64,000 nucleotides of DNA from Pleomorphomonas carboxyditropha. Its GTDB lineage: Bacteria > Pseudomonadota > Alphaproteobacteria > Rhizobiales > Pleomorphomonadaceae. A program made the position numbers and the translations under genes. Positions 1 to 8,360 of this stretch are shown here, piece by piece. The stretch covers positions 186,001-250,000 of the forward strand of contig NZ_NQVN01000003.1 in NCBI RefSeq assembly GCF_002770725.1, given 5' to 3'. Each line of letters opens with the position of its first letter. The first letter of the stretch is position 1. Under the pieces are notes generated by a model that was given only the letters and a program-made list of their open reading frames with translations, did not search any database and was not told the origin of the DNA.

Positions 1-289
1 GCTCGCCAGCGGTGCATCCGCCTTCATGACCATTGCCGACCAAGCGGCGCTTGCCACAATGCAGCTCTTGGCGTCGGGCGCCGCCGGGGCCACCATCGTC
101 GGCGGCGAATCGGGGGTCGCCGGCCTTGCCGGATTGATCGCCGCCGCCGGCCAGCCGGACTGGCGGCAGGCGCTCGGCCTTGACAGCGCCTCGCGCGTCC
201 TGCTGTTCGGCAGCGAAGGTGACACCGATCCGGATCTTTACGCCCGCATCGTCGGCCGCACCGGCGACGCGGTTCGCGCTGGAGCATAA
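1..289 (+). CDS. dpaL: 2,3-diaminopropionate ammonia-lyase, C-terminal part (cut by window edge)
   Basis: This PLP enzyme of the YgeX/DpaL family converts D- or L-2,3-diaminopropionate to pyruvate and two ammonia. Only the last 95 or so residues are present; the frame is open from base 2. The visible part has the glycine-rich GGESGVAGLAGL segment, matching the SGESGAVGLG segment of E. coli YgeX, and the EGDTD motif near the C-terminus (FGSEGDTDPDLY), which is typical of the family. The stop is followed after 3 bases by the ATG of the next gene, so it is the upstream member of the same operon. In E. coli the homologue sits with ygeY, hyuA, ygfK, ssnA and xdhD, and the same partners follow here. 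A threonine dehydratase-like enzyme is the alternative, but context and motifs favour DpaL. Confidence 0.85.
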   Translation, partial: LASGASAFMTIADQAALATMQLLASGAAGATIVGGESGVAGLAGLIAAAGQPDWRQALGLDSASRVLLFGSEGDTDPDLYARIVGRTGDAVRAGA

Positions 290-292
290 GAG

Positions 293-7179: not shown

Positions 7180-8360
7180 CCTATTCGATCACCCTGGGAC
7201 CCGACCGGACCGGCCGGCTTGTCGCCATCGTCGACGGCGTCATCGCCGCGGCGCCCGACCCGGCGGCGCCGGTCGTCCCCTGCCCGCAAGGCGAGATCGC
7301 GGCGGGCGCCGTCTGCGCCCATACCCACCTTTATTCCGGTCTCGCGCCCTACGGCATGCCGGCGGCCGAGCCGGCGCCGGTCCATTTCATCGAAATCCTG
7401 GAAAAGGTCTGGTGGCGGCTCGACCGGGCGCTCGACGCCGGGGCGCTCAGGGCCTCGGCGCGCGACTATATCGCCAAGGCGCTGCTCTCCGGCACCACCA
7501 GTCTCGTCGACCATCACGAATCGCCGCATTTCATCGGGGGATCGCTGCAGGTGCTGGCGGATGCCGCCGAAGAGCTCGGCGCCCGGGCGCTTCTCACCTT
7601 CGGCGCCACCGAGCGCAACTTCGGCCGCGCCGAAGCCGAAGCCGGCCTTACCGAGTGCGGCAACGTCGAGGAGACGCCGCTGGTGCGTCGTCTCGTCGGC
7701 CTGCATGCCAGTTTCACCGTCTCCGACGACACCATCCGCATGGCGGGCGATCTCTGCCGCGCCCTCGGCACGGCGATGCATGTCCATGTCGCGGAAGCCG
7801 CGGATGACGTCAGGGACGCACAGGCGCGCGGCTATGCCGGACCGCTCGAACGGCTGATCGCCCTCGACGCGCTGCCGGCCGGCTCGATCCTCGCCCATGG
7901 CGTGCACCTCTCCGCCGACCAAGTACGCGAGGCGGACCGGCGCGGCCTCTGGCTCGTCCAGAATCCGCGCTCCAACGAGGGCAACCGCGTCGGCTATCCG
8001 GTCAATCTCCGCCATTCGGACAAGGTGGCGCTCGGCTGCGACGGCTGGAGCGCCGACATGGCCGTCGAGCAAGCGGCGCTCGTCCGCCTTGCCGCCGCCC
8101 ACGGCGACGACCGGGCAGCGGACCGCCTCGACGCCGGCCGGCGGCTGATCGCCGAGCGGTTCGGGTTCTCGGCCACCGGCCTCGGTCCCGGCGCGGCCGG
8201 CGACGTGGTGGTGCGTGAGAATGGCGAGGTGAAGGCCGTGGTCGTCGGCGGCCGGCTGGTCGTCCGCGACGGTCGCCTGGTCGGCGCCGATGCCGACGCC
8301 ATCGAGGCCGAGGCGCGCGCCGAGGCGTCGCGACTCTGGGAAAGGATGGCGGCGCTCTGA
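7176..8360 (+). CDS. ssnA: SsnA-like metal-dependent amidohydrolase
   Basis: This 394-residue amidohydrolase-superfamily protein belongs with the chlorohydrolase/SsnA/guanine deaminase-like group. The metal-binding signature AHTHLYSG lies at about residues 48-55, followed by DHHESP, HVHVAEA (about 202), LAHGVHLS, and LGCDGWSADM with the metal-ligand Asp. It starts at TTG 7176, which overlaps the xdhD stop (TTGA), so translation is coupled; no ATG or GTG gives a comparable N-terminus. E. coli SsnA is about 440 residues, so this one is somewhat short. In E. coli and clostridia ssnA travels with ygfK and xdhD, and the enzyme is thought to open or deaminate the heterocycle produced by the Mo hydroxylase. 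Confidence 0.82.
   Translation: MTYSITLGPDRTGRLVAIVDGVIAAAPDPAAPVVPCPQGEIAAGAVCAHTHLYSGLAPYGMPAAEPAPVHFIEILEKVWWRLDRALDAGALRASARDYIAKALLSGTTSLVDHHESPHFIGGSLQVLADAAEELGARALLTFGATERNFGRAEAEAGLTECGNVEETPLVRRLVGLHASFTVSDDTIRMAGDLCRALGTAMHVHVAEAADDVRDAQARGYAGPLERLIALDALPAGSILAHGVHLSADQVREADRRGLWLVQNPRSNEGNRVGYPVNLRHSDKVALGCDGWSADMAVEQAALVRLAAAHGDDRAADRLDAGRRLIAERFGFSATGLGPGAAGDVVVRENGEVKAVVVGGRLVVRDGRLVGADADAIEAEARAEASRLWERMAAL

What the first reader, a model, noticed from the sequence alone, without database searches (positions are those of the whole stretch)
1..8360. Selenium-type molybdenum hydroxylase operon with two stereo-complementary carbamoylases
Order seen: diaminopropionate lyase, L-type (M20) carbamoylase, D-type (E47-K127-C172) carbamoylase, YgfK, XdhD-like hydroxylase, SsnA-like amidohydrolase. 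E. coli and clostridia carry ygeX, ygeY, hyuA, ygfK, ssnA and xdhD together; that cluster has been linked to selenium-dependent molybdenum hydroxylases and purine breakdown. The diaminopropionate lyase accepts both enantiomers, so a D- plus an L-carbamoylase would let the cell use both isomers of a racemising hydantoin or ureido intermediate down to pyruvate. The proposed pathway is inference: oxidised purine, opened by SsnA-like enzyme, hydantoin step outside the window, carbamoyl-diaminopropionate, then lyase. An aerobic-type alphaproteobacterium with this set would be notable.
Basis: partly seen in the sequence, partly recalled or inferred. Interest (0 to 1): 0.85.

Follow-up and report, generated by a model that had tools for sequence, protein, structure and literature searches.

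The report
Soil-bacterium variant of reductive urate breakdown
A bacterium of the nitrogen-fixing genus Pleomorphomonas carries, in one operon, what looks like a version of the recently described bacterial pathway that takes uric acid apart by reduction, with two ordinary hydrolytic enzymes in place of the ones used by E. coli.

Summary
The gene order is real: diaminopropionate ammonia-lyase (DAL; only its tail lies in the window), M20 ureidohydrolase, D-carbamoylase, short YgfK-like reductase, molybdenum hydroxylase, SsnA-like amidohydrolase, with a divergent RpiR regulator. Selenium is not supported: selD and yqeB were not found over cut-off. The best reading is a variant of the reductive urate pathway published in 2025 (urate, yanthine, ureidomethylhydantoin, 2,3-diureidopropionate, diaminopropionate, pyruvate). 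The two carbamoylases look regio-complementary, not stereo-complementary: one for the 2-ureido, one for the 3-ureido group. In 80 related loci the D-carbamoylase (21), a UacY-like D-aminoacylase (6) and YgeW (16) never occur together, nor do M20 (24) and YgeY (12), so they look like alternatives for the same two steps. Both reductases lack NAD(P)H/FAD modules, as in C. difficile. No hydantoinase is in the operon; the one over cut-off in the genome is in a pyrimidine-type locus. The DAL-M20-D-carbamoylase cassette also occurs without YgfK in other Hyphomicrobiales, so its substrate range may be wider. The genome also has oxidative urate genes. New variant of a known pathway; no chemistry was tested.

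The parts
1..289 (+). C-terminal part of 2,3-diaminopropionate ammonia-lyase (whole gene L010:5060-6289, starts 941 bp left of the window)
   Evidence: NF006058 513 bits, cut-off 276; 39.6% identical to E. coli YgeX; residues aligned to YgeX K77, D120, D189 conserved (catalytic roles recalled)
293..1549 (+). M20-family ureidohydrolase; proposed to remove the 3-ureido group (role of YgeY)
   Evidence: TIGR01879 419 bits, cut-off 204; PDB relatives include N-carbamoyl-beta-alanine amidohydrolase and L-carbamoylases; five putative metal-binding residues (recalled) invariant in 26 of 26 rows aligned
1564..2481 (+). N-carbamoyl-D-amino acid hydrolase (nitrilase superfamily); proposed to remove the 2-ureido group (role of YgeW/UacY)
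   Evidence: The 11 best PDB sequences are D-carbamoylases, 391-414 bits; E47, K127, C172, R175, R176 invariant in 17 of 17 rows
2498..4522 (+). Short YgfK-like reductase (architecture described for UacX): FMN-barrel-like part plus 4Fe-4S motifs, no FAD/NAD(P)H module; proposed to reduce yanthine
   Evidence: TIGR03315 387 bits, below cut-off 835, best stretch on profile 4-405 of 1,012; Fer4 domains; AlphaFold2 model pLDDT 90.9, best folds DHODH and dihydropyrimidine dehydrogenase
4537..7179 (+). Molybdenum hydroxylase, [2Fe-2S] and Mo domains fused, no FAD domain; proposed urate to yanthine step
   Evidence: TIGR03311 883 bits, cut-off 830; Fer2, Fer2_2, MoCoBD domains; start ATG at 4537 or 4543
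7176..8360 (+). SsnA-like amidohydrolase; proposed hydrolytic opening of the reduced purine
   Evidence: SsnA models are the best matches but below cut-off (PRK07203 253 against 444; TIGR03314 241 against 455); 34.8% identical to E. coli SsnA; of five positions looked at four His are shared, the fifth (C288, picked one residue off) is not

Best explanation
A six-gene operon for a hydrolytic variant of the reductive urate pathway. Inferred route: urate is reduced to 2,8-dioxopurine (yanthine) by the Mo enzyme; the short YgfK reduces it further; SsnA opens the ring to ureidomethylhydantoin (and some 5-ureidodihydrouracil); a hydantoinase/dihydropyrimidinase encoded elsewhere (contig C80) opens this to 2,3-diureidopropionate; the D-carbamoylase removes the 2-ureido group from the D (R) form; M20 removes the 3-ureido group; DAL turns diaminopropionate into pyruvate and ammonia. 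Electrons probably come from ferredoxin, because neither reductase has a flavin/NAD(P)H module. Shown here: gene content, domain content, conservation and the exchange pattern among related loci. Inferred: every substrate, the direction of the Mo enzyme, the electron donor, and which ureidase takes which group.
For: Same enzyme classes as the pathway reconstituted in vitro (PMC12507026). In 80 loci around short-YgfK relatives: XDH in 42, SsnA-type in 39; D-carbamoylase 21, UacY-like 6, YgeW 16, no locus with two of these; M20 24 and YgeY 12, overlap 0. The UacY-like gene is PF07969, the Pfam family used for UacY in that paper, and matches D-aminoacylase structures. The Ramlibacter locus L076 has a urate-permease relative (52% to UacT), SsnA, XDH, short YgfK, hydantoinase, M20 and D-carbamoylase together. 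The three loci with a UacT relative (L076, L081, L083) all have SsnA and a hydantoinase; of these only L076 has the D-carbamoylase. In G267 a full-length YgfK (909 bits, over cut-off) with an SsnA relative and an XDH relative lies next to the same DAL-M20-D-carbamoylase set. The one genome of the genus without SsnA also lacks the D-carbamoylase at E <= 1e-60.
Against: No hydantoinase and no UacT relative in the operon, the 64 kb window or 20 kb to its left; in the own genome the only UacT match is weak (31%, 91 bits). The residue that the authors think may orient urate for yanthine formation (XdhD E606) aligns to K570 here, in an uncertain alignment, and the Mo enzyme has a Glu/Arg/Glu set (E413, R521, E837 of my 887-residue translation) that I recall for xanthine dehydrogenases. 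The SsnA-like protein is under the SsnA cut-offs. The genome also has HIU hydrolase and OHCU decarboxylase of the oxidative route, both over cut-off. DAL-M20-D-carbamoylase cassettes exist without YgfK: 23 of the 24 such genomes searched had no match to the N-terminal YgfK part (at most 19 candidate places were scored per genome), so the cassette is not tied to urate.
Confidence: 0.66

Rival explanations
1. The Mo enzyme works in the oxidative direction on a purine and hands its electrons to the short YgfK, so that hydroxylation and ring reduction balance each other without NAD(P)H; the later steps are as in the best explanation but the starting purine is not urate.
For: Neither protein has a FAD/NAD(P)H module and they are encoded side by side; E413/R521/E837 resemble the recalled xanthine dehydrogenase set, and E. 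coli XdhD differs at two of the three aligned positions.
Against: C. difficile XdhD and UacX also lack FAD modules and belong to a urate-degrading cluster; UacT relatives beside three related clusters point to urate.
Confidence: 0.14
2. The DAL-M20-D-carbamoylase part is a separate cassette for imported ureido- or diaminopropionate compounds that happens to be co-transcribed with a purine-reducing cassette.
For: DAL, M20 and D-carbamoylase lie together in 12 of 20 fetched regions, one of which (L200) also has urate-type genes; L190 and L192 have TRAP-transporter-like ORFs beside them (my reading of translations); 23 of 24 such genomes searched lack the N-terminal YgfK match.
Against: M20, D-carbamoylase, XDH and SsnA lie with YgfK in 13 of 80 loci from two phyla (titles), and the cassette is next to a different, full-length YgfK-SsnA set in G267. 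A tree of 35 D-carbamoylases needs at least 7 changes of this linkage, with strongly supported branches forcing at least 2.
Confidence: 0.1
3. One reading: the two carbamoylases are stereo-complementary and serve both enantiomers of a racemising hydantoin or ureido intermediate.
For: One enzyme is a D-carbamoylase relative and M20 relatives include L-carbamoylases; DAL of E. coli is active on both isomers (stated in PMC12507026).
Against: Two ureido groups have to be removed anyway; the alternation with D-aminoacylase-like genes/YgeW on one side and YgeY on the other fits two successive steps; M20 is as close to a beta-ureidohydrolase (319 bits) as to L-carbamoylases (304 and 291 bits).
Confidence: 0.06

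Closest known systems
Reductive urate (uric acid) degradation cluster of E. coli and C. difficile (PMC12507026)
   Same: DAL (YgeX), SsnA-type amidohydrolase, YgfK/UacX-type reductase, Mo hydroxylase, an M20 enzyme; in C. difficile also FAD-less reductases and a hydrolytic (not phosphorolytic) step for the 2-ureido group
   Different: D-carbamoylase of the nitrilase superfamily instead of YgeW or UacY; M20 of TIGR01879 instead of YgeY; no hyuA, ygeW, yqeA or uacT match nearby; no selD/yqeB over cut-off; host is an alphaproteobacterium. The paper already reports SsnA clusters in Pseudomonadota, Bacillota, Chloroflexota, Actinomycetota, Spirochaetota and Elusimicrobiota, so wide spread as such is not new; its main text has no occurrence of carbamoylase, nitrilase, Planctomyc-, Acidobact- or Rhizob-
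Selenium-dependent molybdenum hydroxylase (SDMH) systems (Haft and Self 2008, PMC2276186, passages)
   Same: Mo enzyme over the cut-off of TIGR03311; relatives of ygeX, ygfK and ssnA
   Different: SelD and YqeB (TIGR03309, which that paper finds only in selD-positive genomes) are not found over cut-off here
Reductive pyrimidine (Pyd) pathway and D-hydantoinase/D-carbamoylase hydantoin use (gene sets recalled)
   Same: Reductase, cyclic amidohydrolase and carbamoylase logic; the own genome has a separate locus on C80 with a D-hydantoinase, an M20 gene and preT/preA-like ORFs
   Different: The operon has a Mo hydroxylase, an SsnA-like enzyme and DAL; its M20 is 42% identical to the one of the C80 locus

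Membership tests
Reductive urate degradation pathway | YgeX-type diaminopropionate ammonia-lyase | tested here: met
   NF006058 over cut-off; TIGR03528 354 bits, below its cut-off 532
Reductive urate degradation pathway | SsnA-type amidohydrolase | tested here: inconclusive
   SsnA models are the best matches but under their cut-offs
Reductive urate degradation pathway | YgfK or UacX reductase with FMN barrel and 4Fe-4S | tested here: met
   TIGR03315 partial match, under the full-length cut-off; Fer4 domains; DHODH/DPD-like fold. FMN binding itself not tested
Reductive urate degradation pathway | Mo hydroxylase that reduces urate to yanthine | tested here: inconclusive
   Related family (TIGR03311); activity not testable; XdhD E606 not conserved in an uncertain alignment
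Reductive urate degradation pathway | Hydantoinase HyuA in the cluster | tested here: not met
   No HyuA or hydantoinase match in the window or 20 kb to its left; D-hydantoinase over cut-off elsewhere in 13 of 14 genomes of the genus. So it is filed as a variant, not a full member
[quoted passage not shown]
   Two ureidohydrolase-family genes, alternating with YgeW/UacY and YgeY in related loci; activity not tested
Reductive urate degradation pathway | Consumption of urate without oxygen | not testable with these tools
   -
Selenium-dependent Mo hydroxylase system | selD in the genome | tested here: not met
   0 of 14 genomes of the genus over cut-off; best 61 against 125 bits; over cut-off in 2 of 14 control genomes
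Selenium-dependent Mo hydroxylase system | yqeB (TIGR03309) | tested here: not met
   21 against 220 bits in the own genome; over cut-off in 1 of 14 control genomes
N-carbamoyl-D-amino acid hydrolase | Glu-Lys-Cys catalytic set and paired Arg after the Cys (roles recalled) | tested here: met

The most novel reading that the evidence does not exclude
The D-carbamoylase, known mainly as an industrial enzyme (recalled), has a natural place in urate breakdown: with M20 and a lyase it forms a modular terminal cassette for D-configured 2,3-diureidopropionate that has been joined more than once to different purine-reducing sets, in Alpha- and Betaproteobacteria and Actinomycetota. If so, it also speaks to two questions that the commentary PMC12990295 lists as open: the 2-ureido group is cut first, and the intermediate is D (R).
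Probability: 0.36. Interest if true: 0.75.

Novelty: new variant of a known kind. Interest (0 to 1): 0.62.

Why it matters
The reductive urate pathway was worked out in 2025 with gut bacteria; [quoted passage not shown] Here an alphaproteobacterial genus of nitrogen fixers carries a variant, and loci with the same core genes occur in Betaproteobacteria, Acidobacteria, Planctomycetes and Actinobacteria. Natural replacement of the ureido-cleaving enzyme by a D-carbamoylase or a D-aminoacylase-like enzyme is independent, testable evidence on the site and configuration of that step, and offers alternative enzymes for engineered urate breakdown.

Tried and rejected
Selenium dependence: rejected on selD and yqeB; yqeC was sought only in the window and 20 kb to its left (no match). 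XdhD-type hydroxylase: rejected, TIGR03313 214 against 1,102 bits. YgeY identity of the M20 gene: rejected (24.6% over 183 residues to YgeY). FSA-like gene at 8520-9200 as a seventh member: set aside, 159 bp gap and not beside SsnA in L064, L069, L070, L097. Left out of the counts: nitrilase-family matches of 23-29% in L090, L093 and L104, a UacY match of 27% in L138 (which has a D-carbamoylase), a YgeW match of 23% in L133; these weak ones could be further functional alternatives. The identity thresholds were set after seeing the map. L097's 45-residue remnant counts among the 21 D-carbamoylases, and 8 of the 21 are Pleomorphomonas or its nearest kin; 37 of 80 loci have none of the three alternatives, many being short contigs. 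The Fisher tests (p = 3.4e-6 for D-carbamoylase against YgeW, 0.025 against UacY, in 46 loci) take no account of relatedness. Literature, by listings: searches showed no paper on a D-carbamoylase in urate breakdown; one search was uninformative (10,207 papers, 8 listed, none naming the genus); only open-licence papers are held, and the 2025 Nature Microbiology paper (PMC12666987) is not. Uricase, ferredoxin reductases and Rnf were not searched.

Full report
Setting. The window is G000:C33:186001-250000 of a 5.88 Mb genome in 80 contigs. Named relatives of the operon show that the genus is Pleomorphomonas, Hyphomicrobiales (P. oryzae, P. diazotrophica and P. koreensis at 78-88% identity in the YgfK-like protein). 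Passages describe the genus as nitrogen-fixing, with the [FeFe]-hydrogenase maturases in two species (PMC4967309), and one isolate with nitrogenase, denitrification and hydrogenase genes that was also grown aerobically (PMC13286885; its abstract start, seen, says that several isolates of that project were obtained under strict anaerobic conditions). 'Aerobic-type' is therefore doubtful.

The operon. Reading left of base 1 shows that DAL is the first gene, starting 941 bp outside the window, with an RpiR-family regulator on the opposite strand 50 bp further left. Further left the ORFs read as sugar-alcohol dehydrogenases and ABC transport. Genes inside are 3-16 bp apart or overlap. The same order is kept in the 12 genus relatives fetched (L036-L046 and L048; L036 and L048 are cut by contig ends). 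In the order sample, 16 of 397 genomes have the SsnA gene at E <= 1e-40: 13 of the 14 genomes of the genus, 0 of 6 other genomes of the family, and 3 of one other family. Two of those three keep M20-D-carbamoylase-YgfK-XDH-SsnA without DAL in the fetched region; the third keeps M20-YgfK-XDH-SsnA with a remnant of the D-carbamoylase.

What the proteins are. DAL passes a family cut-off and keeps the positions aligned to YgeX K77, D120 and D189. The D-carbamoylase is closest among solved structures to N-carbamoyl-D-amino acid amidohydrolases (391-414 bits), far above N-carbamoylputrescine amidase (71 bits). The M20 enzyme is closest to amidases without a stated substrate (343-332 bits), then N-carbamoyl-beta-alanine amidohydrolase 8c46 (319) and L-carbamoylases (304, 291). 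The YgfK-like protein has no FAD/NAD(P)H part; its AlphaFold2 model (pLDDT 90.9, 44 sequences) matches dihydroorotate dehydrogenases and dihydropyrimidine dehydrogenase (TM-scores by query length 0.32-0.37, as only the barrel aligns). The Mo enzyme belongs to the TIGR03311 family and has no FAD domain. The model name says 'selenium-dependent', but selD is over cut-off in 0 of 14 genomes of the genus (2 of 14 control genomes are over it) and yqeB is not over cut-off in the own genome.

Published pathway. Li et al. (PMC12507026; abstract, results part 1 of 3, discussion and the bioinformatics section read; passages) rebuilt: urate to yanthine (XdhD-YgfM), reductive dearomatisation (YgfK or UacX) with SsnA to ureidomethylhydantoin and 5-ureidodihydrouracil, HyuA to 2,3-diureidopropionate, YgeW or UacY to albizziin, YgeY and YgeX to pyruvate. 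In C. difficile both reductases lack FAD modules, and UacY, a D-aminoacylase homologue, replaces YgeW. Their SsnA network already spans six phyla, Pseudomonadota and Actinomycetota among them. The SsnA, short YgfK of the window score below the NCBIfam cut-offs, so a survey by family membership may have missed this variant; that was not checked. The commentary (PMC12990295) states that a second group places YgeW on the 3-ureido group, that an R configuration has been proposed, and that both points are open.

Exchange pattern. Mapping them with E. coli, window and cluster proteins (lists) gave: XDH 42 of 80, SsnA-type 39, PLP-enzyme genes of a pair 27, M20 24, D-carbamoylase 21, YgeW 16, hydantoinase 13, YgeY 12, DAL 9, UacY-like 6, UacT relative 3. 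Overlaps: none between D-carbamoylase, UacY and YgeW; M20/YgeY 0; M20/YgeW 0; DAL/PLP pair 0. Positive links: M20 with D-carbamoylase 17, YgeW with YgeY 11, M20 with UacY 5. Many loci are short contigs, so absences are weaker than presences. The UacY-like gene is Amidohydro_3 and matches D-aminoacylases. Hence the D-carbamoylase most simply stands where UacY and YgeW stand, and M20 where YgeY stands. Since D-aminoacylases and D-carbamoylases act at the alpha nitrogen of D-amino acids (recalled), this favours the 2-ureido group and the D configuration; that last step is inference from family specificity.

The missing hydantoinase. A hydantoinase lies in 13 of the 80 loci and directly beside the D-carbamoylase in L186 and L188. 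In the window's genome one D-hydantoinase is over cut-off (609 against 393 bits); it lies on C80 with an M20 gene and preT/preA-like ORFs. 13 of 14 genomes of the genus have one over cut-off. G203, the genus member without the operon, has it too, and G382, which has the operon, has none over cut-off (86% complete), so it is not specific to the operon.

What speaks for a wider role. D-carbamoylase relatives (E <= 1e-60) occur in 111 of 397 genomes of the order, including all 16 with SsnA. Of the 95 without SsnA I fetched the surroundings in 19, plus the second place of G266 (20 regions): 12 of 20 have DAL, M20 and D-carbamoylase together, one of them (G267) with a full-length YgfK, SsnA and XDH relatives alongside. 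For 24 of the 95 I searched the YgfK family: 23 matched only from about profile position 418 onward, the part shared with other FAD/NAD(P)H enzymes (my reading); G267 had a full-length YgfK over cut-off (at most 19 candidate places scored per genome). A tree of 35 D-carbamoylases mixes urate-linked (17) and stand-alone (18) copies: at least 7 changes, at least 2 forced by strongly supported branches. So the cassette is modular, its stand-alone substrate is unknown, and its presence alone does not prove urate use.

Verdict. The gene set is real and conserved, the purine link is right, selenium and stereo-complementarity are not supported, and the best reading is a hydrolytic, probably ferredoxin-driven variant of the reductive urate pathway in an alphaproteobacterium that also keeps oxidative urate genes. 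All chemistry is inferred.

Noticed in passing
L076:11735-15623, L081:2932-5765, L075, L077, L088 and others: Clusters without DAL often carry a pair of PLP-enzyme genes (threonine-synthase-like and cysteine-synthase-like), in some with an L-serine dehydratase; DAL and these genes do not occur in the same locus (0 of 80), so they may replace DAL by another chemistry.
   Followed up: partly
L186, L187, L190, L192-L194, L196, L197, L199, L201, L203: Stand-alone DAL-M20-D-carbamoylase cassettes in other Hyphomicrobiales, some with a cysteine-synthase-like gene or a hydantoinase, without a YgfK match in the fetched region; substrate unknown.
   Followed up: partly
L097 / L047 and L188 (G266): In a Siculibacillus genome the operon copy of the D-carbamoylase is reduced to a 45-residue remnant, while a full copy lies elsewhere with a hydantoinase and an RpiR regulator.
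   Followed up: partly
L059 and L068 (L172, L173): In two soil metagenome-assembled Pleomorphomonas relatives the D-carbamoylase gene is split over two frames; assembly error or decay not distinguished.
   Followed up: no
G000:C64:31230-31577 and G000:C6:92705-93166: HIU hydrolase (beside an ORF resembling a xanthine dehydrogenase small subunit) and OHCU decarboxylase (beside an M20 gene): the genome also has parts of an oxidative urate route; uricase not searched.
   Followed up: partly
window 8520-9200 and 13399-14268: A fructose-6-phosphate aldolase/transaldolase-like gene and a PurU-like formyltetrahydrofolate deformylase ORF follow the operon in several genus relatives; formate is a reported co-substrate of urate use in E. 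coli, but no link was tested.
   Followed up: no
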